Positions 3,849-27,118 of a DNA stretch of 64,000 nt are shown one piece after another. The notes below the pieces were generated by a model, which saw only the letters and a list, made by a program, of their open reading frames with translations, made no database searches and was not told the DNA's origin. A program made the position numbers and the translations under genes. Position 1 is the first letter of the stretch, and each line of letters starts with the position of its first letter. Origin of the DNA: Geomonas oryzisoli (GTDB taxonomy: Bacteria > Desulfobacterota > Desulfuromonadia > Geobacterales > Geobacteraceae); contig NZ_CP076723.1 in assembly GCF_018986915.1 (NCBI RefSeq), positions 2,947,501-3,011,500 on the forward strand, given 5' to 3'.

Positions 3849-3864
3849 TTGACGTTGACGTAAA
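3849..3864. promoter_or_regulatory. LiuR-like operator upstream of etfB
   Basis: TTGACGTTGACGTAAA; read on the minus strand it is TTTACGTCAACGTCAA, the best palindrome of the four copies in the window (halves TTTACGT and ACGTCAA, spacer 2). It lies just upstream of etfB, between promoter and start codon. Confidence 0.65.
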
Positions 3865-3944
3865 ATGCAAAGTCTTGGCAAAAAAAATTCTTGCTGATGC
3901 CGAAAATCTTGCTACGTTCCCACCTTAGCAAAATCCTCTCTGTC

Positions 3945-4135
3945 TCCCCTTCGCAAAGGGGAGGACGCGAGTTCTCGTGCTGCCCTTCGTGAACAGCAGA
4001 CAGGTGCTCCCGTAATTCTCGGCGGAGTGCGGAGTGTCGACCACTAACAGCGCACGTGCCCTAGAGTCCCCCCTTTGCGAAGGGGGGACAGGGGGGATTT
4101 GCCTCTGGGCAACCCCCCTTCGCAAAGGGGGACTT
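3945..4135. repeat. Cluster of CCCCTTCGCAAAGGGG palindromes
   Basis: Three copies of a short palindrome (3946-3962, 4067-4088, 4114-4132) of the form CCCCTTTGCGAAGGGG or its complement, in the gap between the CoA-transferase operon end and etfB. A weaker relative (CCCCCTTTGACAAGGGGGG) is at 54884-54903. They resemble REP-like elements. No gene is apparent in 3865-4164; one hairpin could serve as terminator for the upstream operon (inference). Confidence 0.7.
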
Positions 4136-4164
4136 ACAAAGCGAAAGGCCCTAAAAATTTCGTG

Positions 4165-4986
4165 CTACGCCCGTTTCACCTTGGGAATGAAGATCTGCTC
4201 CGGGTCGAGCACTTCGTGGATGAAATGCAGCTCCTCCCTGGTGGGAGGGAGGGTTTCGCCGCTAACCCGGGTGATGTCGAGGTCGAACTGACACATCTCC
4301 CGGATCTGCTCGGGCGTGTTGCCGGCATGACAGGTATCGAGGTAGATCCGGCCGGTCTCGTCATCGAAACGGAACACACCCAGCGTGGATATGACCGCCG
4401 AGGGGCCGCCGCGGTAGGCCGCGCCGTAGAGCTCGCGCCGATGCACGGTTTCACCGCCAGGCCACTTGCGCACCCGCCAGCCGGGGCTGGTGATGTAGCT
4501 CACCTGCTCGGTGAAGCGGCGCTTTTCATGCACCATGATGAACACGGTGCGCCTGGCGAAGGAGTTGATGTCGGGGTTGCCGCCGCTGCCGGTCAGGCGC
4601 AGCTCCGGGCTCAGGTAATCGCCGATGCAGGTCGTGTTGACGTTGCCGTACTGGTCCACCTCGGCGCCCCCTAGGAACCCCAGGTCGACGTAGCCGCGCT
4701 GGGCGATGCTGAAGGCGTCGTGCAGGCCCGAGGAGCGCGAGGCGCCCATCTCGCAGCGGGCGTCGCCGACCGAGGTGGGAATCTCCGGCGGCCGGCCGTC
4801 CAGCGTCCCGGCCTCGAAGATCAGCTTGAGGTTGGGCGCGTGGGTCTTCTGCGCCAGCATGATGGCCACCATGGGGAGCCCGGTGCCGGCGAAGACGATT
4901 TCGTGGTCCTGCACCTCGCGGGAGGCGGCGCAGCAGAGGAGATCGGCCAGCCCGTATTCTTCAGGTTTTGCGAACTCTTTGTTCAT
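4165..4986 (-). CDS. CoA-transferase subunit B (glutaconate CoA-transferase-like)
   Basis: Beta subunit (273 residues) of a heterodimeric family I CoA-transferase. FEAGTLDGRPPEIP near residue 58 contains the glutamate expected to form the glutamyl-CoA thioester intermediate. GGAEVDQYGNVNTT is the usual family I motif. ATG at 4986 lies one base after the stop codon of the alpha subunit gene, so the two are translationally coupled. It ends the thiolase-led operon. Substrate specificity is not visible: glutaconate, 3-oxoacid or short-chain acyl-CoA activation are all possible. The beta-oxidation genes in the operon favour activation of a fatty or branched acid. Confidence 0.88.
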   Translation of the reverse strand: MNKEFAKPEEYGLADLLCCAASREVQDHEIVFAGTGLPMVAIMLAQKTHAPNLKLIFEAGTLDGRPPEIPTSVGDARCEMGASRSSGLHDAFSIAQRGYVDLGFLGGAEVDQYGNVNTTCIGDYLSPELRLTGSGGNPDINSFARRTVFIMVHEKRRFTEQVSYITSPGWRVRKWPGGETVHRRELYGAAYRGGPSAVISTLGVFRFDDETGRIYLDTCHAGNTPEQIREMCQFDLDITRVSGETLPPTREELHFIHEVLDPEQIFIPKVKRA

Positions 4987-4987
4987 G

Positions 4988-5953
4988 TCACTGCCCCCTT
5001 TTCACGCCGGTGCTGTACTTGAGCGCTGTATTGGCTTTCAGGTTCAGCATCTTCGGCCAGCCGAGCTTCTCCAGGTAGGCCACGTGGTCCAGACCGTGAA
5101 TCCACTCCTTGGCAAAGGCATCGAACCCTTCCTGGGTCCTGGTCTTGGCGTAGAAGTCCTTCAGGAAAGCGCCATCCACATCGTAGCGGCCGAACATCCC
5201 CGTGGGGTGGGCGCCGAAGGGGACTTCGAGGATGTGATCGACCTCGAAGCTGGTGATGGTATTCAGGTCGCTGTCGCGCCTAAGGTACTCTTCCGGGACG
5301 ATCTCCTCCGCGATGACGATGGTGACGTCGGCCGCCCTGGCCACCTCGGGATCTGAGTAGAACTGGCCGTTCACCCGCACCGTCCCCTCCTCCCCCACCT
5401 GCTGCACGCAGAGGATGGCCACGTCCACCTTGGCCGCCGGGACCAGCACCTGGGCGCCGGCACCGTAGAAGGGATCTTCGGTGAAGCGGTATTTGTGGCT
5501 GGGGATGCGCTTGCCGTCGCGAAGCCCTGCGTTGCCGAGCGTGTCGTAGGCGGGATTGTGGATGTCGGTGCCGAGCGAGGTCTGGGTCACGGCGTAGGGA
5601 GCGCCCGAGGCGGCCGCGCTGAAGCGGAACAGCATCTCGGCGTGGCTGTAATCCTCGACCAGGATCTCCTTGTTGCCGACCTTTCTGGAGAGGTTGGCGC
5701 CGTACTTGCCGTAGAGCTCATGGCCGACCCAGCACGACTCCCAGATGTCGACGCACCCGGCACCGACCAGGAACTCGGTCTGGGGGCCGCCGTTCACCTC
5801 GATGAGGTGGAGTCCCTTCTTCCTTTGCCGGATCAGTTCGTAGACCAGCGCGAAGGGGCGCCGCCAGATGGTGAAGCCGGAAAAGGTCAGGCTGGAGCCG
5901 TTTTTCACGATCTCGGCCGCCTGCTGCAACGTAATCCGCTTGCCGCTACTCAT
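4988..5953 (-). CDS. CoA-transferase subunit A (glutaconate CoA-transferase-like)
   Basis: Alpha subunit (321 residues) of the CoA-transferase. GSSLTFSGFTIWRRPFALVY near residue 18 and the following NGGPQTEFLVGAGCVD region resemble the N-terminal CoA-binding part of glutaconate CoA-transferase alpha chains. AAGGAGGG lies 6 bases before the ATG. It sits between an acyl-CoA dehydrogenase gene and the beta subunit gene, all on the minus strand. It would move CoA from acetyl- or succinyl-CoA to the acid that is then oxidised by the operon's enzymes (inference). Confidence 0.87.
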   Translation of the reverse strand: MSSGKRITLQQAAEIVKNGSSLTFSGFTIWRRPFALVYELIRQRKKGLHLIEVNGGPQTEFLVGAGCVDIWESCWVGHELYGKYGANLSRKVGNKEILVEDYSHAEMLFRFSAAASGAPYAVTQTSLGTDIHNPAYDTLGNAGLRDGKRIPSHKYRFTEDPFYGAGAQVLVPAAKVDVAILCVQQVGEEGTVRVNGQFYSDPEVARAADVTIVIAEEIVPEEYLRRDSDLNTITSFEVDHILEVPFGAHPTGMFGRYDVDGAFLKDFYAKTRTQEGFDAFAKEWIHGLDHVAYLEKLGWPKMLNLKANTALKYSTGVKRGQ

Positions 5954-5993
5954 GCGTCCCTCCTTGAGACGAGGTTAAGGGCTCAACCTGTCT

Positions 5994-7151
5994 TTAGCTG
6001 TGGTTCTTCAGAATCTCGCGGGCGATGATGACGCGCTGGATTTCACTGGTTCCCTCGTAGATGGAGGTGATCCTGACGTCGCGGGCGTAGCGCTCGACCG
6101 GGAAATCGGCGGTGTAGCCGTAGCCACCCAGCATCTGCACGGCGTTGTAGCAGGCACGATTGGCGGCCTCGGTGGCGAAGAGCTTGGCCATGGAGGCTTC
6201 TTTGGCGAAGGGACGGCCGCTCTCTTTGCGGAAGGCGGCGCTCATCAGCAAAAGGCGCGCAGCCTCCAGTTCGGTGTAGCTGTCGGCGATCTTCCACTGG
6301 GTAGCCTGGAAAGCGCTGATCTTCTGCCCGAACTGCACCCGCTCGGTGCTGTACCGGGTGGCGTAGTCCATGGCGGCGAGACCTATGCCGAGCGCCAGGG
6401 AACCGATGCCGATCCTCCCGCCACCCAACTCGGCGACGGCAATCCGGAAACCGTCGTTCAGCTTCCCCATCAGCGCGTCCTTCGGGATGCGGCAGTTGTC
6501 AAAGACCACTTCGTTGGTGGCCGAGGCGTGCTGCCCGGTTTTCTCCTCCTGCTTGCCGATGACGAGCCCCGGCGTCCCCTGCTCCACCAGGAAACAGCTG
6601 ATCCCCTTCCCTTTGGGCGCCTCCTTGTCGGTCACCGCCCAGACCACGAAGACGCCGGCGTAGGGCGCGCTGGTGATGAAGATCTTGGAGCCGTTCAAAA
6701 CCCAGCTGTCGCCGTCGAGAACGGCGGTGGTGGTCATGCCGGCAGGATCGGATCCGGCGCCGGTCTCGGTGAGGGCGAAGCTCCCGGCGGCGTAGGCGCC
6801 GGAACAGATGCGCGGGATATACTTCTCCTTCTGCTCCTGCGAGCCGATCGCCTGGATCACCTCGCACACCATGTTGTTCACCGAGACGGTCACCGCGGTG
6901 GAGGCGCAGGCGCGGGCGATTTCGGTCATGGCGACACTGAAGGCGACCACACCGGCCTCGGAACCGCCATACTCCCCCTGGACGTTCAGCCCCATGAAGC
7001 CCAACTCCGCCAGCTTCTTCAGGTTGGCAAGGAAGGCGGGATGATCCCCCTCACGGTCCAGCTTGGCCGCGAGCGGTTCCAGCACGGAACGGGCGAAGTT
7101 GCGGGCGGTTTCCTGGATCAGCTTCTGTTCTTCGGTAAGTTCGAGAAACAT
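5994..7151 (-). CDS. Acyl-CoA dehydrogenase (first copy)
   Basis: FAD-dependent acyl-CoA dehydrogenase (385 residues), oxidising an acyl-CoA to the 2-enoyl-CoA and reducing ETF. FALTETGAGSDP near residue 128 is the ACAD signature 1. VRITSIYEGTSEIQR near residue 360 holds the catalytic glutamate (YEG). Length and domain order (N-terminal helical, beta, C-terminal helical) are normal. GGGAG precedes the ATG by 8 bases. It lies between the second etfA and the CoA-transferase genes. It differs clearly from the paralogue at 11324-12463, so the two probably act on different acyl chains, one perhaps branched or short; which is which cannot be read here. Confidence 0.93.
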   Translation of the reverse strand: MFLELTEEQKLIQETARNFARSVLEPLAAKLDREGDHPAFLANLKKLAELGFMGLNVQGEYGGSEAGVVAFSVAMTEIARACASTAVTVSVNNMVCEVIQAIGSQEQKEKYIPRICSGAYAAGSFALTETGAGSDPAGMTTTAVLDGDSWVLNGSKIFITSAPYAGVFVVWAVTDKEAPKGKGISCFLVEQGTPGLVIGKQEEKTGQHASATNEVVFDNCRIPKDALMGKLNDGFRIAVAELGGGRIGIGSLALGIGLAAMDYATRYSTERVQFGQKISAFQATQWKIADSYTELEAARLLLMSAAFRKESGRPFAKEASMAKLFATEAANRACYNAVQMLGGYGYTADFPVERYARDVRITSIYEGTSEIQRVIIAREILKNHS

Positions 7152-7206
7152 CGGTGTCTCCCACTTTCAACTCCGGTTGCTGTTCGCCTTCCTGCAGGGG
7201 CCGCTG

Positions 7207-7242
7207 CCCCCTCCCTAACCCTCCCCCTCCGGGGGAGGGGAC
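7207..7242. repeat. CCCTCCCCCTCCGGGGGAGGG palindromic element
   Basis: GC-rich palindrome preceded by CCCTCCCTAAC in the 111-base gap between etfA and acyl-CoA dehydrogenase. Related copies are near 11290, 17520, 21535, 21640 and 56820. Typical of REP-like intergenic elements. Confidence 0.75.
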
Positions 7243-7262
7243 GGACCGGCATCACTACTGTT

Positions 7263-8204
7263 TCATCGTGCGCACTTGGCGGTGAAGGCGGGGACGAACT
7301 GCATCACGTCGGCCACCACCAGGACGTCGGCGATCTCGCCGATGGGGGCGTCCTTGTCCTTGTTGATGGCGACGATGAAGTCGGCCTTCTTCATACCGGC
7401 CAGGTGCTGGATGGCGCCACTGATGCCGCAGGCGACGTACAGCTTCGGGCTCACGGTCTGCCCCGTGGTACCGACCTGGTGGCTGTGATCGATCCAGCCG
7501 GCATCGACCACAGGGCGGCTCGCGCCGAGCTCTCCCCCCAGGGCGCTGGCCAGGGCGGCGATGACGGGGACGTTGTCCTTCTTGCCCACGCCGCGGCCGG
7601 CGCTCACGATCACCTCGGCCCGGGTCAGGTCGACCCCCTTCTGCTCGGCCGCCTCGTAGCCTACGAACTCGATGCCTGAGTCGGCCTGGGACAGCTCCAG
7701 GGGTTCCACCTGCGGCGTCCCCTGCGGTTCACCGGCCAGGGTGAAGGCGCCGGCCTGGATGGTGAGGACCAAAAGGGGACAGGCACCTGACGGAGCCAGT
7801 CCCCTTGCAGGCGTCACGGTCCGGCGCAGCTTGGCGTTGCAGACGTTCACCTCGAAGGCGCCTTCGTTAAGCGCCACGATCTCGGACACCTGCCCCACCT
7901 TCAGGGCCGCGGCGACACGCGGGGCGAGATCCCAGCCGTATGAGGAGTGGACGAAGACGATGCAGTCCGGGTTCTCCCGCTCCACCGCCTGCAGCACCAG
8001 CTTCTTGTGCAGGTCCGGATTGTACTCGCCGTACTTCGCGGCGTCGGCCAGGTACAGCCTGCCGTCGTATTTCGGAAGTTGTGACTGGTTTCCCACCAGC
8101 AGCAGCGCGCTCTCGGCGCCGAGCCGATCGGCGAAGGCCAGAAGTTCGTAGGTGGTGTCGAGGAGCTTGCCCTGCCGGTATTCCCCTATCAGTAACGCTT
8201 TCAT
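7263..8204 (-). CDS. etfA: Electron transfer flavoprotein alpha subunit (second copy, repeat-altered)
   Basis: ETF alpha subunit of 313 residues without a ferredoxin extension. The FAD-binding C-terminal half is intact: [11 protein letters not shown] near 208, [24 protein letters not shown] and [14 protein letters not shown] near 265. The stretch after LRRTVTP, about residues 133-145 ([12 protein letters not shown]), is encoded by a dispersed 33-bp palindromic repeat (7773-7805) that elsewhere lies between genes. The frame stays open across it, so the protein has probably tolerated a changed loop in the N-terminal domain. GGAGGGATCA precedes the start ATG. etfB lies directly upstream (end at 8319). 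Confidence 0.9.
7773..7805 (+). repeat. GGGGACAGGCACC element, copy A (inside etfA)
   Basis: AGGGGACAGGCACCTGACGG followed by AGCCAGTCCCCTT. It is identical in pattern to intergenic copies at 8273-8304, 48895-48926 and 54353-54385. It lies wholly inside the etfA reading frame and is read on the minus strand as protein. Confidence 0.9.
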
Positions 8205-8272
8205 TGATCCCTCCGTTGCAGCGCTATTTTGTCGCCCCGTTGCGGTGGCGGTCGGTTCTCCCTCGTTTAGAG

Positions 8273-8304
8273 AGGGGGACAGGCACCTGCGGAGCCAGTC
8301 CCCT
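8273..8304 (+). repeat. GGGGACAGGCACC element, copy B
   Basis: GGGGGACAGGCACCTGCGG then AGCCAGTCCCCT. It lies in the gap between etfB and etfA (8205-8318), only about 470 bases from copy A. It lacks one base in the centre relative to the other copies. Confidence 0.88.
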
Positions 8305-8318
8305 CCGCCCTGCCCTCG

Positions 8319-9095
8319 CTATCTGAGCACCGCGATCTTTTCCTTCAGTATCCCCATGAGCCGGTCCACCTGGTTGCCCAGTTCCCCTTCCAGCACGATG
8401 CCGCCTCCCTTCTTGGCCGGAGGATAGATCGCGGCGGTGGCGGTCAGTTCCGCTTCCTGGGAGAGTTCGGCCACCGGGAAGGTGGCGATCTCCTTCTTCT
8501 TCGCCTTCATGATGTTGGGAAGCGTCGGGTAACGCGGGGTGTTGAGCCCCAGCTGGCAGGTGACCAGCGCCGGGAGCTTCAGCTTCGCCACGCCTTTGAT
8601 CCCCCCTTCCAGTTCCCGCTTCACGGTCACGGTGCCGCCGTCGTAGCTGAAGCCGACCAGGGTGGTGGCGCAGGAGATACCAAGGAGCTCGGCGACGGTG
8701 ACGCCGACCTGGGCCGAGCCGCGGTCCTGGGACTGCATGCCGGTGAAGATGAGGTCGAAGCCCTGCCCCTTGGCGTAGCTCGCGATGATCGAGGCGATCT
8801 GCCAGGGATCCTTCTGGTAGTAGCGATCGTCCTGGATGTGGACGGCGCGGTCCCCGCCCATGGCGAGCGCCTTCTTGATCGCCTCCACCGTCCGCTCCGG
8901 GCCGATGGAGAGGACCGTGATCTCGGGCTCCCCACCCAGTTGCTCCTTGAGCTGGACCGCCTGCTCGACCGCGTACTCGTCGTATTCGTTCATGCGGAAG
9001 GCGAGGTCGGCCTCGTCGTACCAGGTCTTGTCGCCGTTGGCCCTGAACCGGGACTCCATGTCCGGTACCTGTTTGATGCATACCAGTATCTTCAT
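8319..9095 (-). CDS. etfB: Electron transfer flavoprotein beta subunit (second copy)
   Basis: ETF beta subunit of 258 residues, pairing with the second ETF alpha. MKILVCIKQVPD is the family N-terminus. The motif RYYQKDPWQIAS and the later GMQSQDRGSAQVG (near residue 122) mark the nucleotide-binding region. The start is ATG 9095 with AGGAGG 7 bases upstream; a longer frame to 9137 overlaps the preceding leader and is rejected. It follows the membrane oxidoreductase gene by 28 bases, giving the order oxidoreductase, etfB, etfA. Confidence 0.95.
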   Translation of the reverse strand: MKILVCIKQVPDMESRFRANGDKTWYDEADLAFRMNEYDEYAVEQAVQLKEQLGGEPEITVLSIGPERTVEAIKKALAMGGDRAVHIQDDRYYQKDPWQIASIIASYAKGQGFDLIFTGMQSQDRGSAQVGVTVAELLGISCATTLVGFSYDGGTVTVKRELEGGIKGVAKLKLPALVTCQLGLNTPRYPTLPNIMKAKKKEIATFPVAELSQEAELTATAAIYPPAKKGGGIVLEGELGNQVDRLMGILKEKIAVLR

Positions 9096-9123
9096 AGCTT
9101 CCTCCTCTGAATTCTTTGCGGCG

Positions 9124-11241
9124 TCACGCCGACACACCTTCCGCAGCCGCCAGCCGCTCTTCTTCCGGCGGGGCCTGCTCCTTTCTCCCGGACGCCTCGG
9201 CCAGCGACACCACCGCGGCCAGGCTCAGTTCCTTTTCCGGCGTCCCGAAGTTCACCGGCGTGGCCAGCCGTTCCACCACGACCTCGGCCAGGTCCCGCAC
9301 CGCCAGTTTCCCTTCGCACTCGCCGGTCTTGATGCCGTCCTCGAACATGGTGAGGCAGAAGGGGCAGTTGGAGACGATGAGCGGCGCGCCGGTCGCCTCG
9401 GCCATTTTGACCCGCTGCACGTTGATCCGGTTGCCAAGTTTCTCCTCGGCGAGGATCCGGCCGCCGCCGGCCCCGCAGCAGAAACTCTCCAGCCCGGACC
9501 GCTGCATCTCGTTGATCCTCCCTCCCGCCACGTGCAGCACGTTGCGCGGCTGCTCCATGATTCCCTGGTAGCGCCCCAGGTAGCAGGAGTCGTGGTAGGT
9601 GTAATCGAACTGGTGCGGAGCGAGGGTGAGCGCGCCCTCGCCGATGAGCCGGTCGATGAACACCGTGTAGTGCTCGACCTCGATATCGAGCCCCAGGTCG
9701 CGGTAGTCGCGCCCCAGGGTGTTCAGGCAGTGGGGGCAGGTGGTGACGATCTTCTTCACGCCGTACCCCTTGATCAGCTCGATGTTCTCCTGCGCGGTCA
9801 TCTGGTACAGGTACTCGTTGCCCAGCTTGCGCAGCGGCTCGCCGCAGCAGCGCTCCTCCTTGCCCAGGATGCCGACGCTCACCCCGGCAGCGTCGCAGAT
9901 CTTCACGAAGCTCTTGGCCACCTCCTGGTTTCTCTTGTCAAAGGAGGCGTAGCAGCCGACGAAGTAGAGGATATCGGCCTCCTCCCCGTCGGAGAGATGC
10001 CGCACCGGGAGACCGTCGGCCCACTTGCCGCGTTCGGCGTAGGCCATGCCGAAGGGATTGCCGTTCACCTCGACGTTGTTGGCAGCGACCATGACCTCCT
10101 CGCCGGGAAACTCCCCCTGCATGAGCACCAGGTTGCGCCTCATCTCGATGACCTTGTTGACGTGCTCCACCTGTGCCGGGCAGATCTCCTGGCAGGAACG
10201 GCAGGTGGTGCAGGACCAGAGGGCGTCGCGTCCAACGGTCCCGATCAGGTCCGCCTGCGGCGCCGTGCACGCCGTTTCGCCGATCTGCTGCACCACCTGC
10301 ATGGGCGAAAGCGGTTTCTCCGTGTTGAAGGCGGGACAGCGGTCCTGGCACCTTTTGCAGCTGGTGCAGGCGTCGGCGTCGAAAATGTCCTTCCAGGTGA
10401 GGTCGGCGACCTTGTCCACCCCGAAATGTTCGACCCCTTCGGCCTCGAGATCGATGGTGTCGATGCTCCCCTTCGGCCTCAAATCGACGAAGAGGTAGTT
10501 GGCGGGGGTGGTTAAGAGGTGACGGAACTTGGTCCACGGGATGGCGGCGATGAAGCCGGTCACCAGCAGGAAATGGCACCACCACCAGAGCCGGTGCAGT
10601 TCCTTGAGGGACTGCAGGTCGAGTGCTGCGAACTGGCCGGCGACGAAGAGCCCTATCGGCGAGAAGCGGGCCAGCTCCGGGTTCTGGTTCAGCTCGGTGG
10701 CGGCCATGCGCACGCCTTCGGCCAGGAAGCCGGTGATGATGATGGCGGACAGAAGGCCGTGCATCAGGTAATCGTCGCGGGTGATCTTGAGCCCCTCCGG
10801 ACGGGCCACGAAGCGCCGCAGCGCGAGGCCGAACAGGGTGAAGAGCGCGGCCAGCCCGGCCAGGTCCAGCACCAGCGAGTATCCCTTGTAGAAGCTGCCG
10901 GTGAGAATCCTGACGCCGAAGAGCGGCTGCGAGAAATCGGCCTGCGCCATGACGAAAAGCGTCCCGATGAAGAGGACGACGAAGCCCCAGAAGAACAGTG
11001 CGTGCGGGATCCCGGGGCCGGCGACGCGCAGCACCCTGGTCTGGCCGAACAGGTTCGTCGCCGTCAGCGCGATCCGTTCACGGAGGTTGTCCAGGCGGTT
11101 TACGGGTCTCCCCTGGCGGTAGACCTCGATCCGCTTCCAGCACCCGTAGGCACAGGCGGCGAAGGCCAGCAGCGTCAGCAGGTACATCGGGAGCACCACG
11201 CCGTGCCCTACGTTCCAATAGATTTCCCTGGTAGCTTCCAT
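9124..11241 (-). CDS. Membrane Fe-S/heme b oxidoreductase, EMO type (complete)
   Basis: A 705-residue EMO/HdrD-like protein predicted to take electrons from ETF and reduce menaquinone in the inner membrane. Residues 1-260 contain about five to six hydrophobic helices in a NarI-like heme b domain. CTSCKRCQDRCP near 293 and CTTCRSCQEICP near 344 hold two 4Fe-4S clusters. Two cysteine-rich CCG modules follow: ERCCGEPL near 462 with CPHC near 502, and SFCCGAGGG near 587 with CPFC near 625. These are the sites of the noncubane cluster in heterodisulfide reductase subunits. It is immediately upstream of etfB and etfA. It is the second such gene in the window (see 1-1516). AGGAG precedes the ATG by 7 bases. 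Confidence 0.9.
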   Translation of the reverse strand: MEATREIYWNVGHGVVLPMYLLTLLAFAACAYGCWKRIEVYRQGRPVNRLDNLRERIALTATNLFGQTRVLRVAGPGIPHALFFWGFVVLFIGTLFVMAQADFSQPLFGVRILTGSFYKGYSLVLDLAGLAALFTLFGLALRRFVARPEGLKITRDDYLMHGLLSAIIITGFLAEGVRMAATELNQNPELARFSPIGLFVAGQFAALDLQSLKELHRLWWWCHFLLVTGFIAAIPWTKFRHLLTTPANYLFVDLRPKGSIDTIDLEAEGVEHFGVDKVADLTWKDIFDADACTSCKRCQDRCPAFNTEKPLSPMQVVQQIGETACTAPQADLIGTVGRDALWSCTTCRSCQEICPAQVEHVNKVIEMRRNLVLMQGEFPGEEVMVAANNVEVNGNPFGMAYAERGKWADGLPVRHLSDGEEADILYFVGCYASFDKRNQEVAKSFVKICDAAGVSVGILGKEERCCGEPLRKLGNEYLYQMTAQENIELIKGYGVKKIVTTCPHCLNTLGRDYRDLGLDIEVEHYTVFIDRLIGEGALTLAPHQFDYTYHDSCYLGRYQGIMEQPRNVLHVAGGRINEMQRSGLESFCCGAGGGRILAEEKLGNRINVQRVKMAEATGAPLIVSNCPFCLTMFEDGIKTGECEGKLAVRDLAEVVVERLATPVNFGTPEKELSLAAVVSLAEASGRKEQAPPEEERLAAAEGVSA

Positions 11242-11281: not shown

Positions 11282-11325
11282 CCGGCTTCCCCCCACCCAG
11301 CCTCCCCCCTCCTGGGGGAGGAGTT
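11282..11325. repeat. CCTCCCCCCTCCTGGGGGAGGAG palindromic element
   Basis: CCCCACCCAGCCTCCCCCCT followed by CCTGGGGGAGGAG, in the 82-base gap between acyl-CoA dehydrogenase and the membrane oxidoreductase. Nearly identical to the second half of 56870-56912. Confidence 0.75.
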
Positions 11326-12649: not shown

Positions 12650-12656
12650 TGCCTTT

Positions 12657-13457: not shown

Positions 13458-14309
<852 letters not shown>

Positions 14310-15526: not shown

Positions 15527-15565
15527 GGTTTCCTCCCGCGGTTGTTTGTGTTGTGTAGAACTTTA

Positions 15566-15594
15566 TCTATCGTTTACGTAAAAGTCAAGCGAAA
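15566..15594 (-). promoter_or_regulatory. Promoter of the thiolase operon with LiuR-like operator
   Basis: On the minus strand TTGACT (-35) and TAAAGT (-10) are 17 bases apart. The operator TTTACGTAAAAGTCAA (plus strand, 15573-15588) fills the spacer, the position expected for a MerR-family regulator or for a repressor that occludes polymerase. The start codon is about 45 bases downstream. Confidence 0.6.
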
Positions 15595-15724
15595 GTATAA
15601 CGTGATTATAAATGCGTGAAATTATTTTACCACACCGGCGGCCACGCCGCAGCACGCCCCGGGTCAAACAAAGACCCAGTGCGCATGTTTACATATCAAA
15701 ACGCACACTTGCAGGCAACAACCA

Positions 15725-17572: not shown

Positions 17573-20500
17573 CTACATGTTGCGCCGATACTCCCCTCCC
17601 ACCTCGTAGAGGGCCCTCGTGATCTGCCCCAGCGAGGCGCACTGCACCGTCTCCATCAGCTCCGCAAAGATGTTGCCGCCTGCCACCGCGGTCTCCTGGA
17701 GCCGCTTCAGGGCGAGTGGCGCCTGGTCCTTGTGCCGCTCCTGGAACGCGCGCAGGTTGCGGATCTGCTGCTCCTTCTCCTCAACGGTGGCGCGGGCCAG
17801 CTCGCCGGGGATCTGGTACCCCTCTTCGCCGGCACGCGGGTTGAGGAAGGTGTTGACGCCGACGATGGGGAGCTCGCCGGAGTGCTTTCTCGCCTCGTAG
17901 AGCATGGACTCGTCCTGGATCCTGCTGCGCTGGTACTGGGTCTCCATGGCGCCTAGGACGCCGCCGCGCTGGTCGATCCGCTCGAACTCGGCGAGAACCG
18001 CCTCCTCCACGAGGTCGGTAAGCTCGTCGATGATGAAGGCGCCCTGGAGCGGGTTCTCGTTCTTGGCGAGCCCGAGCTCCTTGGTGATGATCATCTGCAC
18101 CGCCATGGCGCGCCGCACCGACTCCTCCGACGGCGTGGTCACCGCCTCGTCGTAGGCGTTGGTGTGCAGCGAGTTGCAGTTGTCATAGAGGGCCATCAGG
18201 GCCTGCAGCGTGGTGCGTATGTCGTTGAAATCCATTTCCTGGGCGTGCAGCGACCGGCCGCTGGTCTGGATGTGGTACTTCAATTTCTGGCTGCGGTCGT
18301 TGGCGCCGTACTTCTCGCGCATCACCACAGCCCAGATGCGCCGCGCCACCCGGCCGATCACCGTGTACTCCGGGTCGAGGCCGTTACTGAAGAAGAAGGA
18401 GAGGTTGGGCGCAAAGTCGTCGATATGCATGCCGCGCGACAGGTAGTACTCCACGTAGGTGAAGCCGTTGGACAGGGTGAAGGCGAGCTGCGAGATGGGA
18501 TTGGCCCCGGCTTCGGCGATATGGTAGCCGCTGATGGAGACCGAGTAGTAATTGCGCACCTGCTGCTCGATGAAGTACTGCTGGATGTCCCCCATCATCC
18601 TGAGCGCGAATTCGGTCGAGAAGATGCAGGTGTTCTGCCCCTGGTCCTCCTTGAGGATGTCGGCCTGGACGGTGCCACGCACGGTCTGCAGGGTGCGGGC
18701 CTTAAGCTCCGCATATTCGGCGGGGGACGGTTCGCGCCCCTGTGCGGCCCTGAACTGCTCCAGCTGCTGCCGGATGGCCGCGTTAAAGAAGAAGGCCAGC
18801 ATGATCGGCGCCGGTCCGTTGATGGTGATGGACACGCTGGTCGAGGGGGCGCAGAGGTCGAAGCCGGCGTAGAGCTTCTCCATGTCCTCGACGGTGCAGA
18901 TGGAGACCCCGCTCTCACCCACCTTGCCGTAGATGTCGGGCGGGAAGTCCGGGTCCTCGCCGTAGAGGGTCACGCTGTCGAAGGCCGTGGAGAGGCGCTT
19001 GGCGCCGTCGTCCTGGCACAGGTAATGGAAGCGCCGGTTGGTCCGTTCCGGGGTCCCCTCGCCGGCGAACTGCCGTTTGGGGTCCTCCTCGGCGCGCTTG
19101 AACGGGAAGACGCCGGCCGTGTACGGGAAGAAGCCGGGGAGGTTCTCCTTCATGGACCACTTGACGATCTCCCCCCAGTCCTCGTAGTCGGGGAGACAGA
19201 CCTTCGGGATCCTGGTCCCGGAGAGGGACGTGGTGTAGAGCTCGGTGCGGATCTCCTTGTCGCGCACGCGGGTGACCTGCGCATCCTGGCGGTAGCACTC
19301 CTTGAGACCCTTCCAGCCGTCGATGATGCGCCGCGGCTCTTCCTGCAGTTTGGCGGAGAAGCAACCGATGACCTGGTCCAGCTCGGCGATGGTACCCTCC
19401 CCCTTCACCTCCCTCCTGGCCCCGGAGAGCTGGAACAGGGTCCGTGCCACGGCCGCCTGCTCCTCGACACTCTTACGGTAGCCGCGCACGCTCTGAACGA
19501 TCTCCCCCAGGTAGTGCACCCGGTCCGGCGGGATGATGTACTGCTTCAGGCTCTCGCGCTCGGTGATCTGCAGGCGCGACTGCCACCCCCTCTGCTTCTT
19601 CTCGTTGACCCGGTCCAGGAGGGCCCGGTACAGCACGTTGGTGCCGGGGTCGTTGAACTGGGAGGCGATGGTGCCGTAGACCGGGAGTTCCGCATCCGGG
19701 ATGTCGAAGAGGTTACGGTTGCGACGGTATTGCTTGCGCACGTTTCGTAGCGCGTCCTCTGCCCCCTTGCGCTCGAACTTGTTGAGCGCCACCAGGTCGG
19801 CGAAGTCCAGCATGTCGATCTTCTCGAGCTGGGTGGGAGCACCGAACTCGCAGGTCATCACGTAGAGCGAGACGTCGCAGATATCCACCACCCCGGCGTC
19901 CCCCTGGCCTATCCCCGAGGTCTCCACGATCACGAGATCGAAGCCGGAGGCGCGCACCACGTCGATGGCGTCGCGTATCGCCGCCGAAAGTTCGGAGCGG
20001 GAATCGCGGGTGGCCAGGGAGCGCATGTAGATCCGGTCGGTGTTGATGGAGTTCATCCTGATCCGGTCGCCTAAAAGCGCGCCGCCGGTGCGCTGCCGGG
20101 AGGGGTCCACCGCGAGGATCGCCACGCTCTTCTCGGGGAAATCCCTGACGAAGCGGCGCACCAGCTCATCGGTGAGCGAGCTCTTGCCGGCGCCGCCGGT
20201 CCCGGTGATGCCGACCACGGGTACGTCGCGCCCCATGGACCGGATCCGCTCCCGTACCGCGCCGTACCCCTCGCTTTGGTCGTGCACCGCCTGCTCGGCG
20301 AGGGTGATCAGGGTGTTGACCGCGCGGATGTCCCGCTCCTTGAGCCGCTCGATCTCCCGGTCGGTGTCGCGCTCCGGGCTGAAGTCGCACAGCTCCAGCA
20401 TGTGGTTGATCATCCCCTGCAGCCCCATCCGCCTGCCGTCCTCCGGGGAGAAGATCTTGCTCACCCCGTACGCCTCGATCTCGCGGACCTCGTCGGGGAC

Positions 20501-20821
20501 GATGACGCCGCCCCCCCCTCCGAAGACCCTGATGTGGTCGGCGCCGCGCTCCCTTAGCAGATCGCAGATGTACTTGAAGAACGGGACATGCCCCCCCTGG
20601 TAGCAGCTCACCGCGATGCCCTGGGCGTCCTCCTGGATGGCGGCGGTGACGATGGCGTCCACGGAGCGGTTGTGTCCCAGGTGGATCACCTCCGCGCCCG
20701 AGGACTGGAGCATCCGCCGGATGATGTTGGTGGCGGCATCGTGCCCGTCGAAGAGACTGGTCGCCGTGACGAAACGGATCTTGTGTCTGGAGCGATAAGG
20801 CTCCGCAGCGGCTATGTGCAT
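17573..20821 (-). CDS. icmF: Fused isobutyryl-CoA mutase IcmF (B12 domain, MeaI-type GTPase, mutase)
   Basis: Adenosylcobalamin enzyme interconverting isobutyryl-CoA and n-butyryl-CoA, and in known members isovaleryl-CoA and pivalyl-CoA. At 1082 residues it has the fused IcmF architecture: an N-terminal B12-binding domain (DGHDAATNI at 25, supplying the cobalt-ligand histidine), a chaperone GTPase (Walker [10 protein letters not shown] near 207), then the mutase barrel. In the substrate pocket, FPFKRAEED and QNTCIFS carry Phe and Gln where methylmalonyl-CoA mutases have Tyr and Arg (assignment from memory of the family), favouring IcmF over methylmalonyl-CoA mutase. AAGGAGAAACGAC precedes the ATG. 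In this context it could feed branched acids into the butyryl-CoA oxidation genes at 4165-15526. Confidence 0.92.
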
Positions 20822-21736: not shown

Positions 21737-23746
21737 CTAGTGGTCGGCCGCCTTGGCGATGCCGATGCCGGTATTCTGGCGCACGTCGATCTCGTCGAAC
21801 ATCTCCTCGGCACGGCGCTCCCTGAAGAGCAGACAGCCAAAGAAGGCGGCCATGAAGCCCAGCGGGATCGAGACGATGCCCGGGTTCTTGAGCGGGAAGA
21901 TCGGGGCATCGAGCCCCACCATGGACTTGCCGTCCTTGTTCTTCACGTACTCGGCACGCGATTTCTCGAGGGCCTGCACTTCCTTCTCGGCCAGCACCGC
22001 ACCGCCCGCCTGCTTCTTCTCCAGGGTCTCCACCACCTTCTTGGCGTCGGCCGCGATCTTCTTCGGATAGGTCATCACCGGCGAAACCATCACCAGGGCG
22101 AGTGCTGAGATGGTCCCCACCACCAGCCCGGAAACGATCCCGGCCGTATTGAACTTGCGCCAGAACAAGGAGAACATGATCACCGGGAAGTTGCCCGAAG
22201 CCGCGACCGCGAAGGCGAGCGCCACCAGGGCCACCACGTTCTCCTTCTCGGCCATGAGCCCCATCACGATGGCCGAGGTGCCCACGAAGAGCGAGGTGAT
22301 GCGGGCCACCTTCACCTGCAGCTGCTGATCCGCCTTGCCGTCCTTGATGATGTTGACGTAGACGTCGTGGGCGATGGCGGCGGAGGCTGCCAGCACCAGG
22401 CCGGAGACGACGGCCAGGATGGTCGCGAAGGCGACCGCGCAGATAAAGGCGAGGAAGATGTCGCCGCCGAGGCTCCCCGGGCCGCCGCCCATGTGCTGGG
22501 CCAGGAGCAGGGTCGCCATGTTGCCCCCCTTGTCGACCGCCGAGATCGCCTGCGGGGTGAGGTAGAGCGCGGCGCCGAAGCCGATCACGCTGATCATGAA
22601 GAAGAAGCTGGAGTTGAGGAACAGGGCCACGATGATCGACTTGCGCGCATCCTTCGCGCTGGGAACGGTGAAGAAGCGCATCAGGATGTGGGGGAGCCCT
22701 GCGGCGCCCAACGCCCAGGCGAGGCCGAGCGAGATCTGGTCCAGGGGATTTTTGAGGAACAGGCCGGGCTCGAGGAACCTCTGGCCGTAGTCGACGCCGG
22801 GTTTTGCGATCACGTCCTTTAAGACGTTCATGCGCACGTGCTCCTGGATGGCGCTGTTGCTGACCACGTCCGTGAAGAAGCCGACCGGGTTGAAGCCCGC
22901 CTTGATGGCTACCAGCAGGCACAGGACAGTCGTCGCGCCCATGAGAAGCGATGCCTTGATGATCTGCACCCAGGTGGTCGCCTTCATGCCGCCGAATACC
23001 ACGTAGGCGACCATGAGAGCGCCCACGCCGATGACCGAGACCCGGTACGGGATGTTCAAAAGCATCTGCATCAGCTTGCCCGCGCCCACCATCTGCGCGA
23101 TGAGGTAGAAGATGGAGACCGTCACCGTCGAGAGCGCGGCGACCCCGCGCACCACCTTTGGGGAGCTCCTGAAGGAGAGGATGTCGCCCAACGTGTACTT
23201 GCCCGCGTTTCTGCAGGGCTCGGCGATGACGAGGAGGATGGCGATGAAGGAGAACATCGGCCCCACCGCGTACATGAAGCCGTCGATGCCGTAGAGCGAG
23301 ATGAGGCCGGACATCCCGAGGAAGGACGCGGCGGACATGTAGTCGCCGGCGATGGCCCAGCCGTTCTGGAAGCCGGTGATCCCCCCGCCTGCGGTATAGA
23401 AGTCCGATGCGGTCTGGGTCTTCTTGGCGGCCCAGACCACGACCCCCATGGTGACGGCGATGATGAGCGCGAACATGCCGATGGTTATGCCGCGGTTGGG
23501 GGTGATCTTGGCCGGAGCACCACCCTTGGCCGGCGCCGCCGCGACCTTTGCCGCCGCGTTAGGAGCAGGAGCGGCCTGGGTCGCGCCGGTGGCCTGGGCA
23601 GGTGGGGCGGCGGCCTGGACCGGTGCGGCGGCGGTAGCGGTGGCCTGAGGAGCTGCGGCTGTGGCGGGCGCCTGGGCGCTGACGGCAGCCGCGCCGAACA
23701 TCGATAGCGACAGTGCTACGGTTAAAGCGGCGATCCTCTTTTTCAT
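21737..23746 (-). CDS. actP: Acetate/monocarboxylate:Na+ symporter (ActP-like, SSS family)
   Basis: Sodium:solute symporter for acetate or related monocarboxylates, 669 residues with about 13 membrane helices. DFYTAGGGITGFQNGWAIAG near residue 115 and MSAASFLG match ActP of E. coli. The start is ATG 23746 (MKKRIAALTV), giving a signal peptide like that of E. coli ActP; the frame is open further upstream but covers the next gene. Unlike E. coli, about 75 residues rich in Ala, Pro and Gln separate the signal peptide from the first transport helix. It lies 32 bases downstream of the DUF485 gene, the usual ActP partner. Confidence 0.92.
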   Translation of the reverse strand: MKKRIAALTVALSLSMFGAAAVSAQAPATAAAPQATATAAAPVQAAAPPAQATGATQAAPAPNAAAKVAAAPAKGGAPAKITPNRGITIGMFALIIAVTMGVVVWAAKKTQTASDFYTAGGGITGFQNGWAIAGDYMSAASFLGMSGLISLYGIDGFMYAVGPMFSFIAILLVIAEPCRNAGKYTLGDILSFRSSPKVVRGVAALSTVTVSIFYLIAQMVGAGKLMQMLLNIPYRVSVIGVGALMVAYVVFGGMKATTWVQIIKASLLMGATTVLCLLVAIKAGFNPVGFFTDVVSNSAIQEHVRMNVLKDVIAKPGVDYGQRFLEPGLFLKNPLDQISLGLAWALGAAGLPHILMRFFTVPSAKDARKSIIVALFLNSSFFFMISVIGFGAALYLTPQAISAVDKGGNMATLLLAQHMGGGPGSLGGDIFLAFICAVAFATILAVVSGLVLAASAAIAHDVYVNIIKDGKADQQLQVKVARITSLFVGTSAIVMGLMAEKENVVALVALAFAVAASGNFPVIMFSLFWRKFNTAGIVSGLVVGTISALALVMVSPVMTYPKKIAADAKKVVETLEKKQAGGAVLAEKEVQALEKSRAEYVKNKDGKSMVGLDAPIFPLKNPGIVSIPLGFMAAFFGCLLFRERRAEEMFDEIDVRQNTGIGIAKAADH

Positions 23747-23778
23747 ATCTGGTCCCCCTCTTTGATTGATGGACGAAT

Positions 23779-24084
23779 CTATTGCAAGGCTTCCAGCAGC
23801 TGCTTGGTGAGCCGGTCGAAGGTCTTGTTGGCCACGTGGGCGTAGTAGATCGCCACCCCGATGGCCATGACGAACTGGGACAGGATGAAGAGGTAGCCGA
23901 AGTTGATGGGGCCAATGACCTTGACCCTGAAGGCCTCGGGGAAATAGCCCGAGATGACCGGAAGCAGGAGGTAGTAGATGGTCGAGATGATCCACCAGCT
24001 GAAGAGGAAGTTTCGTTTCTTGCGCTTTAGCTCGATGAACTTGCTGTGGTTGGCGATTGCTTCCCATTGCTGTTTTTCCGACAT
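23779..24084 (-). CDS. DUF485 membrane protein (YjcH-like)
   Basis: A 101-residue inner membrane protein with two hydrophobic helices (FSWWIISTIYYLLLPVISG and FGYLFILSQFVMAIGVAIYY). In enterobacteria the homologue yjcH sits between acs and actP. ATG 24084 has AAGGAG 8 bases upstream; a GTG at 24093 overlaps that site and is rejected. It precedes the symporter gene and is probably an accessory or stabilising subunit. Confidence 0.88.
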   Translation of the reverse strand: MSEKQQWEAIANHSKFIELKRKKRNFLFSWWIISTIYYLLLPVISGYFPEAFRVKVIGPINFGYLFILSQFVMAIGVAIYYAHVANKTFDRLTKQLLEALQ

Positions 24085-24199
24085 GGCCGTCACTCCTTCT
24101 GTTAGGGTTACCAGTGTCTGAAAGCGGCGCCGCCGCTTCCGTCCTCATCCCCCCGCCTGCGCCGGGGGAGCCAATAGCTCCAGGAAAGGGTCGCGTGCT

Positions 24200-25039
24200 T
24201 CAGGGTGGGGCATAGCCGAACCGCGCGGAGAGGAGTTCGGCGCTCAGGCGCAGGGAGGGGATGATCTCCTGCTCCAGCCGATCTCCCAGCAGTCGAAACG
24301 ACGGGCCGAAAAGCATCAGGGCGCCCACCACCTTGCCGGCGTAATCCCTGACCGCCACCGCCACGGTGACCACCCCGTCCCCCATGCCGCTGCATTCCAC
24401 CGCGACCCCGTTCACCCGGATCTTTTCCAGTTCGACCCGCAAGGCAGCCAGGTCCGGACACCCGCCCCGGCTGCCGCGCCACCTCCTCCCGATCTGCTCC
24501 AAGAGGTCCCACGAATCGATGGCCCGCATCACCTTGCCGGCGGCGTTGGCGAAAAAGGGGAAGCGCCTTCCCACCAGCGGCTCTCCCCTCCCCTGCTGCA
24601 GGGGATCCACCAGGTCCAGCAGCAGCACCTCGTCCCCCTTGGGGATCGCCATGCAGATCGCCTCGTTGTGGCGGCGGGCCAGTGCCTCCAGCACCGGCCG
24701 GGCGTCCTTCAGGATGGTCACCTTCAGGTCGTCGTCGTGCTCGGACAGGACCGAGCGCACCAGCGGGCCGAGAAGCCGGTTGTCGCGGGCATTGTGCAGC
24801 AGGGACCGGGCGAGTTTCCTGGCCCGGCTTTCGTCGTACTTCCCGCTTTGCACCGCGCACGCCACCAGCCCCTTGTCCTCCAAAAGCGCCAGGAGAAGCC
24901 GTGCCCGGTACGGGGTGATGGCGGCCTGGCGCGCCAGCGCCGTCAGGGAACAGCGCGCACCCTGCGCCGCCACGATTTCGAGGAGCTCGACCGCCTTTTG
25001 CAACTCGTCGCGCGAAAGCTCACCTTTCTGCGTTTCCAT
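24200..25039 (-). CDS. IclR family transcriptional regulator
   Basis: DNA-binding regulator of 279 residues: an N-terminal winged helix (residues 10-70, SLTALARQAAITPYRARLLL) and a C-terminal effector domain (EAICMAIPKGDEVLLLDLVD, then PFFANAAGKVMRA near 165). GAGGTGGACGG precedes the ATG. It lies between the acetate permease genes and the CoA-transferase gene, 23 bases from the latter, so it probably controls acetate or acyl-CoA uptake and activation. The ligand is unknown. Confidence 0.88.
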   Translation of the reverse strand: METQKGELSRDELQKAVELLEIVAAQGARCSLTALARQAAITPYRARLLLALLEDKGLVACAVQSGKYDESRARKLARSLLHNARDNRLLGPLVRSVLSEHDDDLKVTILKDARPVLEALARRHNEAICMAIPKGDEVLLLDLVDPLQQGRGEPLVGRRFPFFANAAGKVMRAIDSWDLLEQIGRRWRGSRGGCPDLAALRVELEKIRVNGVAVECSGMGDGVVTVAVAVRDYAGKVVGALMLFGPSFRLLGDRLEQEIIPSLRLSAELLSARFGYAPP

Positions 25040-25062
25040 CCGTCCACCTCAAAAGATGCCGG

Positions 25063-26622
25063 TTAGTTCCAGTTGTCGATCTTCATGGTCCCTTTTTCCG
25101 CCAGGTGCTGCTGCATCTTGAACACCTTGAAGAGCATGTGCGGCTCATGCCCCACGTTCAACTCGCAGCATTCCCGCTTCGCCCGCTCGTAGTACTCCTG
25201 CATCAGCGGCTTGTAGTCGGGATGGACGCATTTGGTGATGATGGTCCTGGCGCGCTCCTGGGGGGAGAGGCCGCGCAGGTCCGCGAGCCCCTGCTCGGTG
25301 ACCAGGACATCCAGGTCGTGCTCGGTGTGGTCGACGTGGGGCGCCATGGGGACCACGCAGGTGATGCCGGTGGGGTCGGTCTTTGATGGGCGCGTCGACG
25401 GGGTGTGCATGATGGAGAGGTATGCGTTTCTCAGGAAGTCGCCGGAGCCGCCGATGCCGTTGATCATGCGGGTCCCCCCGACCAGGGTCGAGTTGGCGTG
25501 GCCGTAGATGTCGAACTCGACCGGCGTGTTCATGGCGATCACCCCCAGGCGCCGGATCGGCTCGGGGTTGTTGCTGATCTGCATGGGGCGCAAAACGACC
25601 TTCTGTACGTAGAAATCCCAGTTGTCGTAGAGCCGTTTGAAGCCGTTTTCGGAGAGGGAGAGCGAGGTGGAGGAGGCGAAATCGAGCTTGCCGGAGTCGA
25701 AGAAGTCCAGCATGGTGTCCTGGATTACCTCGGTCCAGACCTTCACGTTGGAGAAGGGTCCCTTGACCATGCCCCCCACCACCGCGTTGGCGATGTTGCC
25801 CACGCCGGACTGCAGCGGCAGGAGGTTTTTCGGCAGGCGGCCCGCCTTCACCTCGAACTGGAAGAAGTCGAGGATGTGGGCGGCGATCTGCTCGGAGGTC
25901 TCGTCGGGGTCGGATAAGGCGCGCCCCTTGTCAGGCAGGCGTGACTCCACGATGGCGAGGATCTTGTCCGGGTCGCAGGGGACGTAGGGGGAACCGATCC
26001 GGTCGTCCACCCTGCTGATCAGGTACGGTTTCTTGTAGGGAGGACGCTCGGTCATGACGATGTCATGGATCCCCTCGAAGGAGGGAATGGCGGTGTTGAT
26101 CTCGATGATGAGCTTGTCGGAGTGCTGGATCACCTCGGTGGCGCAGCCGATGGAGCCCCCGAGGATGATGTGGCCTTCCTCGGTGATGCCGCTCGCCTCG
26201 ATGAGCCCCAGGTCGAAGCCGCCCCCCCGCTCCTTGGTGTAGAACCCGTAGGCCAGGTCCTGGGCGTAGACGGAGAGGTGCTTGTCCCCCATGCGAACCG
26301 TGCCGTTGTTCACCTGCTTTTGCACCACCTTACCGGTCTGGTAGGGCCAGCGTTTGTCGGTCATCAGAAGCGAAGCCCAGCGGTCCTCGATCTCCGCGCC
26401 GATGGAGGCGCCGATGAAGAGGTTGAAGCGCATCTTCCCCTGGAGGTTGTGTTTCTCGACGTAATCGGCCAGGGCCGCCGGCACCACCTTCGGGTAGCCG
26501 ACCGGGGTGAAGCCGGACCAGCCGAGGTCCATGCCGTTGCGGAAGAAAGGGATGGTATCCTCGGCAGTCATGATTCTCGAATGCAGGCTCGTCTTTCTGA
26601 TCCTCTTGCGCAACTCGCTCAT
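25063..26622 (-). CDS. Acetyl-CoA hydrolase/transferase family (succinyl-CoA:acetate CoA-transferase)
   Basis: Family I CoA-transferase of 519 residues in one chain. In Geobacter such enzymes activate acetate with succinyl-CoA and so join acetate uptake to the TCA cycle. KVWTEVIQDTMLDF near residue 295 contains the probable catalytic glutamate, and GIGGSGDFLRNAY near 388 is the CoA-binding motif. Length is typical for Cat1/AarC enzymes. ACGGAGGTTGAA precedes the ATG. A MerR-type operator (26966-26981) is 344 bases upstream in the shared divergent region. Confidence 0.9.
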   Translation of the reverse strand: MSELRKRIRKTSLHSRIMTAEDTIPFFRNGMDLGWSGFTPVGYPKVVPAALADYVEKHNLQGKMRFNLFIGASIGAEIEDRWASLLMTDKRWPYQTGKVVQKQVNNGTVRMGDKHLSVYAQDLAYGFYTKERGGGFDLGLIEASGITEEGHIILGGSIGCATEVIQHSDKLIIEINTAIPSFEGIHDIVMTERPPYKKPYLISRVDDRIGSPYVPCDPDKILAIVESRLPDKGRALSDPDETSEQIAAHILDFFQFEVKAGRLPKNLLPLQSGVGNIANAVVGGMVKGPFSNVKVWTEVIQDTMLDFFDSGKLDFASSTSLSLSENGFKRLYDNWDFYVQKVVLRPMQISNNPEPIRRLGVIAMNTPVEFDIYGHANSTLVGGTRMINGIGGSGDFLRNAYLSIMHTPSTRPSKTDPTGITCVVPMAPHVDHTEHDLDVLVTEQGLADLRGLSPQERARTIITKCVHPDYKPLMQEYYERAKRECCELNVGHEPHMLFKVFKMQQHLAEKGTMKIDNWN

Positions 26623-26965
26623 TTCAACCTCCGTTATTTAATGAATGAGACACAAACTATTTTCAACACGGTCACTTCCGCTAGCCGCTGGATTTATTGT
26701 GCTTTAACGCGGACCAGATTCTGCAAAACATAGGTTTGAATAACGTGAACAAACCTGGCAAGACGGGCATCGCACACCTCGTCCACGACACCTAAAAGTC
26801 CCAACCAACCTACGATACCGCCCACCACCGTCAGCGCAAATTTGACGCCTAAGGCAACTCTACAATCGAGTTGCAAATTACAACGAAGCACCTACACGTT
26901 CAAAATACTGTTTTTACGCAGATATATTCGCACAAGCCGCGACTGCGGTAAAAATGTACCAATCG

Positions 26966-26981
26966 TTTACGTTAATGTCAA
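26966..26981. promoter_or_regulatory. LiuR-like operator in the CoA-transferase/merR gap
   Basis: TTTACGTTAATGTCAA, matching the sites at 3849, 15573 and 27103 in both half-sites and spacing. Confidence 0.6.
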
Positions 26982-27066
26982 CCATAAATAAAACGGAATT
27001 CTACGTTGAACATATTTTTCTTTCTCGCCGGCAGCTTCCGCACGGATTCCGGACATGGAGTATTGG

Positions 27067-27118
27067 TTGACAAAACCCGGGGCTTCCTTGAGAATGTCTC
27101 AATTTACGTAAAGGTGAA
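27067..27118 (+). promoter_or_regulatory. merR promoter and autoregulatory operator
   Basis: TTGACA (27067-27072), a 17-base spacer and GAGAAT (27090-27095) form a sigma-70-like promoter. TTTACGTAAAGGTGAA (27103-27118) lies at the expected transcription start and overlaps the ribosome site AAGGTG of the regulator gene. This suggests autorepression. Confidence 0.6.

What the first reader, a model, noticed from the sequence alone, without database searches (positions are those of the whole stretch)
3849..27118. One MerR/LiuR-like regulon inferred from four identical-pattern operators
Seen: 16-bp sites TTGACGTTGACGTAAA (3849), TTTACGTAAAAGTCAA (15573), TTTACGTTAATGTCAA (26966) and TTTACGTAAAGGTGAA (27103) share half-sites TTTACGT and (A)NGTNAA with a 2-base spacer. 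They lie before etfB, the thiolase operon, the CoA-transferase gene and the merR gene itself; the thiolase copy sits between -35 and -10. Known: LiuR is a MerR-type regulator of branched-chain amino acid and fatty acid catabolism with a similar palindrome (from memory). Inference: this regulator controls the whole acyl-CoA to quinone route and itself.
Basis: partly seen in the sequence, partly recalled or inferred. Interest (0 to 1): 0.75.

Follow-up and report, generated by a model that had tools for sequence, protein, structure and literature searches.

The report
MerR switch for acyl-CoA oxidation
Four near-identical short DNA sites mark genes for burning short fatty acids in a Geobacter-type bacterium, and comparison with many relatives suggests that they are real switches read by a small regulator gene beside them, which resembles the known LiuR regulators but was not shown to be one.

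Summary
The four sites are present as described. The tight form YTTACGTNNAHGTCAA occurs 3 times in the 4.85-Mb genome, each time at a window site; the merR copy is weaker. In 39 genomes it gives 62 hits against 1 for the reversed pattern; of 53 placed, 50 lie near homologues of the window's acyl-CoA, ETF or merR genes. Across 195 genomes of the class, 63 of 68 with a close MerR carry the box; in the five exceptions the best match is a paralogue beside a different box. At the thiolase and CoA-transferase promoters the box contains the -35 hexamer of a 17-bp-spaced promoter, so repression is likeliest. The regulon is well supported; LiuR identity is not shown: the protein lies outside the LiuR-like proteins I could collect (that label is recalled), although some carry the same box. 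New here: a second element, TANAANNNNGTTNTA, 7 bp upstream of the box at 41 of the 62 places. The loose one-mismatch pattern is at chance level (67 against 60). Binding, ligand and expression are untested.

The parts
3849..3864 (-). operator before etfB, 14 of 14, reversed relative to the other two pathway promoters
   Evidence: an equivalent lies before etfB in six other fetched same-genus genomes
15573..15588 (-). operator over -35 and spacer of the thiolase promoter, 13 of 14
   Evidence: a site at -56 to -67 in 24 of 31 thiolase upstream regions
26966..26981 (-). operator over -35 and spacer of the CoA-transferase promoter, 13 of 14
   Evidence: a distal site upstream of merR in 48 of 54 non-MerR2 named loci
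27103..27118 (+). weaker autoregulatory operator 4 bp before the merR ATG, 12 of 14, overlaps the Shine-Dalgarno region
   Evidence: proximal site in 16 of 54 non-MerR2 named loci
27123..27539 (+). merR: 138-aa MerR-family regulator without cysteine
27067..27095 (+). predicted merR promoter TTGACA-17-GAGAAT
26953..26981 (-). predicted CoA-transferase promoter TTGACA-17-TACATT; -35 lies inside the operator
15560..15588 (-). predicted thiolase promoter TTGACT-17-TAAAGT; -35 lies inside the operator
15589..15610 (-). upstream element (X box) TANAANNNNGTTNTA plus 7 bp, thiolase promoter
26982..27003 (-). upstream element (X box) TANAANNNNGTTNTA plus 7 bp, CoA-transferase promoter
14351..15526 (-). 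thiolase
13458..14309 (-). 3-hydroxyacyl-CoA dehydrogenase
12657..13439 (-). enoyl-CoA hydratase
11324..12463 (-). acyl-CoA dehydrogenase
9124..11241 (-). membrane Fe-S protein, taken as ETF:quinone oxidoreductase (EMO type; the name is inference)
7263..9081 (-). etfB-etfA pair (8224-9081, 7263-8204); the first has no Pfam hit, called EtfB from its position
5994..7151 (-). second acyl-CoA dehydrogenase
4165..5953 (-). two-subunit CoA-transferase
3020..3832 (-). etfB under the 3849 operator
1664..3010 (-). etfA with an N-terminal ferredoxin domain
25063..26622 (-). CoA-transferase, over the ScpC cut-off (succinyl-CoA:acetate type)
24200..25039 (-). IclR-type protein, downstream in the same run
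21737..24148 (-). SSF transporter, downstream in the same run
17573..20821 (-). IcmF fused isobutyryl-CoA mutase; no box of its own in this genome

Best explanation
The four sites are operators of one small regulon read by the MerR-family protein encoded at 27123-27539. By inference, a dimer binds TTKACGTNNACGTMAA. At the thiolase and CoA-transferase promoters the box contains the -35 hexamer and much of the 17-bp spacer; at merR it lies just after the predicted -10; at etfB it lies just upstream of the Shine-Dalgarno. In each place bound protein would hinder RNA polymerase, so repression is the likely default. A pathway acyl-CoA (butyryl- or isobutyryl-CoA type) probably releases it and switches on CoA activation, beta-oxidation, ETF and the membrane ETF:quinone step together, while the merR site limits the regulator. 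Shown by computation: the sites, their conservation, gene context and co-occurrence with the regulator. Inferred: binding by this protein, repression and the ligand.
For: Tight box: 3 of 3 hits in the genome are window sites. 62 hits in 39 genomes against 1 reversed; 50 of the 53 placed are near homologues of window pathway genes or merR, five of these by 34-36% homologues only. ACGTAAAC is the top 8-mer of thiolase upstream regions without prior motif, in 20 of 31, against a maximum of 5 in 20 shuffled sets. Box within 350 bp upstream of merR in 48 of 54 loci (distal site), 0 of 9 MerR2 loci; 0.004 expected per 350 bp from the reversed control. Class: 63 of 68 genomes with a MerR at E<=1e-40 have the box, 30 of 127 of the others. 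In three distant merR loci (G060, G067, G072) fetched without a listed tight box at merR, a 12-13 of 14 box lies upstream of merR. Promoter geometry.
Against: No binding, expression or ligand data. The co-occurrence test ignores relatedness. At E<=1e-25, 8 genomes have the box without a MerR and 19 have a MerR without it. 7 of 31 thiolase upstream regions and 6 of 54 merR loci lack a 12 of 14 site. G003 has boxes at thiolase and CoA-transferase (C3) far from its closest MerR (C15). No promoter matching the scan was found at etfB. Loose pattern at chance level.
Confidence: 0.78

Rival explanations
1. The box is real but is read by another regulator, and the neighbouring MerR is a bystander.
For: Binding is untested. 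Eight genomes have the box without a MerR at E<=1e-25. A full palindrome of the same type before a thioesterase gene is kept in three genomes whose close MerR is only MerR2, so another protein may read such sequences.
Against: The box sits beside merR itself in most relatives and box and MerR co-occur. The genome has only four proteins matched by the MerR_1 family.
Confidence: 0.1
2. MerR-style activator: the protein untwists a badly spaced promoter when the ligand is bound.
For: It is a MerR-family protein, and the box overlaps the spacer of two promoters.
Against: The spacers are 17 bp, not the 19-20 bp of classic MerR activators (recalled); the box covers the -35 itself; no cysteine.
Confidence: 0.12
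3. It is LiuR proper, a branched-chain amino acid repressor.
For: Same box before LiuR-like genes of Azospirillum and Tistrella, 14 of 14; IcmF nearby fits isobutyryl-CoA.
Against: Separate clade in three trees; none of the 20 window neighbours scanned (one of them MerR) was a biotin-dependent carboxylase. My LiuR reference set is unverified.
Confidence: 0.1
4. The conserved sequence is a strong promoter (-35, spacer, UP element) and not an operator; the merR copy is a Shine-Dalgarno.
For: TTGACA is a -35; the upstream element is AT-rich; the merR copy ends in AGGTG before the ATG.
Against: ACGTAAAC in the spacer has no promoter role; the etfB copies are reversed and close to the ATG; hits concentrate at one set of genes; co-occurrence with MerR.
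Confidence: 0.05

Closest known systems
LiuR (MerR-family repressor of Ile/Leu/Val degradation in proteobacteria; PMC3223726 passages, PMC5343134 passages)
   Same: MerR family, acyl-CoA catabolic targets, autoregulation, and a box that also precedes LiuR-like genes of Azospirillum and Tistrella (14 of 14) and a Novosphingobium thiolase (13 of 14).
   Different: 25-41% identity to the LiuR-like set and a separate clade; targets here are short-chain beta-oxidation, ETF and the membrane oxidoreductase of an anaerobe. Three of six LiuR-like loci had no box above 11 of 14.
Metal-responsive MerR proteins (CueR, CadR, MerR)
   Same: Fold family; nearest solved structures by sequence are CueR and CadR.
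   Different: Below every NCBIfam cut-off; no cysteine in the window protein.
MerR2 paralogue of the same genome (C1:3076109)
   Same: 71% identical.
   Different: Lacks the TTTACGT box; sits beside AAAAACRNYGTTTTGTAAA, once in each of 17 genomes, each time next to it.

Membership tests
MerR family | N-terminal MerR HTH domain over Pfam cut-off | tested here: met
   MerR_1 58 bits against 21.6; MerR-DNA-bind 50.8 against 25.4
LiuR | Groups with LiuR proteins in a tree | tested here: inconclusive
   Outside a six-member LiuR-like clade supported 100/99, 100/97 and 100/99, but that set's label is recalled and not verified
LiuR | Palindromic box of the LiuR type before targets and own gene | tested here: inconclusive
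   Box shared with some LiuR-like loci; the published LiuR motif was not seen
LiuR | Regulates branched-chain amino acid degradation genes | tested here: inconclusive
   IcmF nearby, no biotin carboxylase among the proteins scanned; regulation was not testable
LiuR | Acts as repressor, released by a pathway metabolite | not testable with these tools
   Only promoter geometry
Metal-sensing MerR | Cysteine ligands and NCBIfam equivalog cut-off | tested here: not met
   No cysteine; 67 bits against 151 for CadR-PbrR, the best match
Classic MerR activator promoter | Operator inside an overlong 19-20-bp spacer | tested here: not met
   17-bp spacers; the 19-20-bp rule is recalled

The most novel reading that the evidence does not exclude
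The regulon uses a composite promoter: a second near-palindrome, TANAANNNNGTTNTA, lies 7 bp upstream of the operator (centres 22.5 bp apart, two helical turns) and is read either by the same MerR protein through a second recognition mode or by a dedicated partner, so that one small regulator, or a pair, both represses and drives the acyl-CoA to quinone genes across a bacterial class.
Probability: 0.3. Interest if true: 0.65.

Novelty: new variant of a known kind. Interest (0 to 1): 0.5.

Why it matters
It gives a testable control circuit for how Geobacter-type bacteria, important in metal reduction and bioremediation, may switch on short-chain fatty acid oxidation together with the ETF-to-quinone step; [quoted passage not shown] metallireducens during carbon limitation (PMC7324539, passages). 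It also offers a natural pair of paralogues, 71% identical, beside different boxes, for studying how a MerR protein changes its target.

Tried and rejected
LiuR membership: not shown; kept as 'works like'. The plasmid hits to the window protein whose neighbourhoods I opened were mostly metal regulators or unannotated; a LiuR-like set came only through the Alloyangia protein. I had taken the Aeromonas protein for LiuR from remembered sequence features; a check of its neighbours found a thiolase, FadL-type proteins, a symporter and serine deaminase, not a liu operon, so I lowered that claim. MerR2 as reader of the TTTACGT box: rejected, since the five genomes whose best match is MerR2 have no tight box. 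MerR2 as reader of the X box: unlikely, since G020, G027 and G030 have one MerR match each and X boxes. X box as a global regulator's site: alone not enriched in this genome (7 against 5). Thioesterase palindrome as a fifth member: left open. Other looser genome matches (L121 to L127) were fetched but not annotated in depth. Literature searches listed no paper that I recognised as describing a MerR regulator of acyl-CoA genes in Geobacter; listings were capped. The founding LiuR paper (Kazakov 2009) is not held and RegPrecise could not be searched, so a prior entry is not excluded.
Full report
What was checked. All four 16-mers are at the stated places. The window is bases 2,947,501-3,011,500 of a single 4.85-Mb contig; the nearest named relatives by MerR are Geomonas species (88-92%). 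Reading the membrane Fe-S protein as an ETF:quinone oxidoreductase is inference.

Chance. The tight form YTTACGTNNAHGTCAA is different: three hits in the genome, each a window site (etfB, thiolase, CoA-transferase), control zero. I chose this form after seeing sites in relatives, so the relatives are not wholly independent of it. The merR site is a weaker fourth (12 of 14).

Comparative evidence. In 39 genomes the tight form gives 62 hits in 23 genomes against one reversed. I placed 53 of the 62 in fetched DNA: 50 have a homologue of a window pathway gene or merR starting within about 420 bp on either side, five of them by 34-36% homologues only; the other three are L182:4052 (none found), L185:4011 (570 bp before an SSF gene) and L195 (contig end). 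The remaining nine are the three window sites and six in loci from other calls. Thiolase upstream regions gave ACGTAAAC as the top 8-mer, in 20 of 31 non-redundant regions (maximum 5 in 20 shuffled sets); 24 of 31 have a site of at least 12 of 14, all at -56 to -67, and seven do not. Of 63 named merR loci, nine are MerR2 type and none of these has the box within 350 bp; of the other 54, 48 have a distal site, 16 a proximal one and six neither. In four of those six (L076, L107, L108, L111) I see by eye a half-site, (T)TTACGTAAAAGG or TTAACGTAAA(A)GG, just before the ATG.

Class-wide. In 195 genomes of the class (a sample), 93 have the box (194 hits) and 104 a MerR at E<=1e-25: both 85, MerR only 19, box only 8, neither 83. 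At E<=1e-40: 63, 5, 30, 97. The five are G001, G007, G009, G011 and G015, whose best match lies beside the MerR2 box; G007 and G015 also have a 45% relative. These tests ignore relatedness. Ten merR loci at 40-76% identity were then fetched, seven partly because a tight box was already listed on the same contig stretch and three (G060, G067, G072) not: all ten hold a box of at least 12 of 14, in nine beside ETF, membrane Fe-S, acyl-CoA dehydrogenase, thiolase or CoA-transferase genes. In L283 the box is 1.6 kb from merR and 52 bp before the membrane Fe-S gene; in L288 no other window homologue was found.

Mechanism. In the thiolase and CoA-transferase promoters the box starts with the -35 hexamer and the spacer is 17 bp: an ordinary promoter that a bound protein would block. 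The merR box follows the predicted -10. The etfB box lies 16 bp before the ATG in reverse orientation, and the scan found no promoter there. I favour repression, released by a pathway acyl-CoA. Binding, repression and ligand are inferred.

Second element. I aligned 76 non-redundant promoters chosen by the operator, so only their flanks are informative. They show TANAA....GTTNTA at a fixed distance upstream (T-22 84%, A-21 88%, A-19 99%, A-18 93%, G-13 82%, T-12 96%, T-11 89%, T-9 89%, A-8 79%) and a C at +16 (93%). Element plus TTGACWT gives 42 hits in 39 genomes, control zero; 41 coincide with operators, so 41 of those 62 places have the exact composite, and the other hit (G003:C16:39193) lies before an IclR-type gene and a thiolase without the right half of the box. 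Alone it is not enriched here (7 against 5). In the most distant loci it looks A-tract-like by eye (L109, L114-L116), which fits an UP element; the conserved G argues for a protein. Unexplained.

Paralogue. MerR2 (71% identical, C1:3076109) sits beside AAAAACRNYGTTTTGTAAA, once in each of 17 of 39 genomes, all of the own genus and each next to a MerR2 gene (the pattern was drawn from such loci). By eye it fills the spacer of a divergent promoter. MerR2 branches inside the clade of the window protein, so it appears to have changed its operator.

Comparison with the known. LiuR is described as a MerR-family repressor of branched-chain amino acid use (PMC3223726, passages), with 103 regulons in a table and 104 in the text (PMC5343134, passages); which regulators are in deltaproteobacteria was not stated in the passages that I saw. 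In R. rubrum a LiuR homologue was linked to butyrate growth (PMC7238569, passages). Two of six LiuR-like loci have a 14 of 14 box upstream of merR, one a 13 of 14 box before a thiolase; the other three have none above 11. The window protein lies outside the LiuR-like clade in three trees; one 30-row tree puts both clades together against three metal-type proteins (95/87), so sisterhood is unsettled. The LiuR-like label is mine, recalled, and the Aeromonas neighbourhood does not confirm it. The term MerR does not occur in the main texts of the G. metallireducens and G. bemidjiensis genome papers (term counts).

Noticed in passing
15589-15610 and 26982-27003 (minus strand): A second conserved element, TANAANNNNGTTNTA, lies 7 bp upstream of the operator at both -35-type promoters and at 41 of 62 operator places in relatives. 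Its reader is unknown.
   Followed up: partly
G000:C1:3075959-3076492 (L118/L119), outside the window: A 71% identical paralogue, MerR2, beside its own box AAAAACRNYGTTTTGTAAA; one box in each of 17 genomes, each next to MerR2. In some relatives (L075, L077, L079, L099) a homologue of the window's nitroreductase gene lies divergently beside it.
   Followed up: partly
G000:C1:1496637-1496652 (L120:9938), outside the window: A full palindrome TTTACGTGCACGTAAA just before a 4HBT thioesterase gene, kept across the genus, also (as TTTACGTATACGTAAA) in G001, G009 and G011, which lack the close MerR.
   Followed up: partly
L254 (G003:C16:39193): X box plus TTGACAT without the right half of the operator, before an IclR-type gene and a thiolase.
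   Followed up: no
3940-4135: Several GC-rich inverted units of the type CCCCTTTGCGAAGGGG between the CoA-transferase and etfB genes, seen by eye.
   Followed up: no
24200-25039: IclR-type protein for which Pfam reports only the C-terminal domain, with no HTH hit at E<=0.001.
   Followed up: no
21737-24148: SSF transporter of 803 aa whose SSF domain match starts only at residue 250.
   Followed up: no
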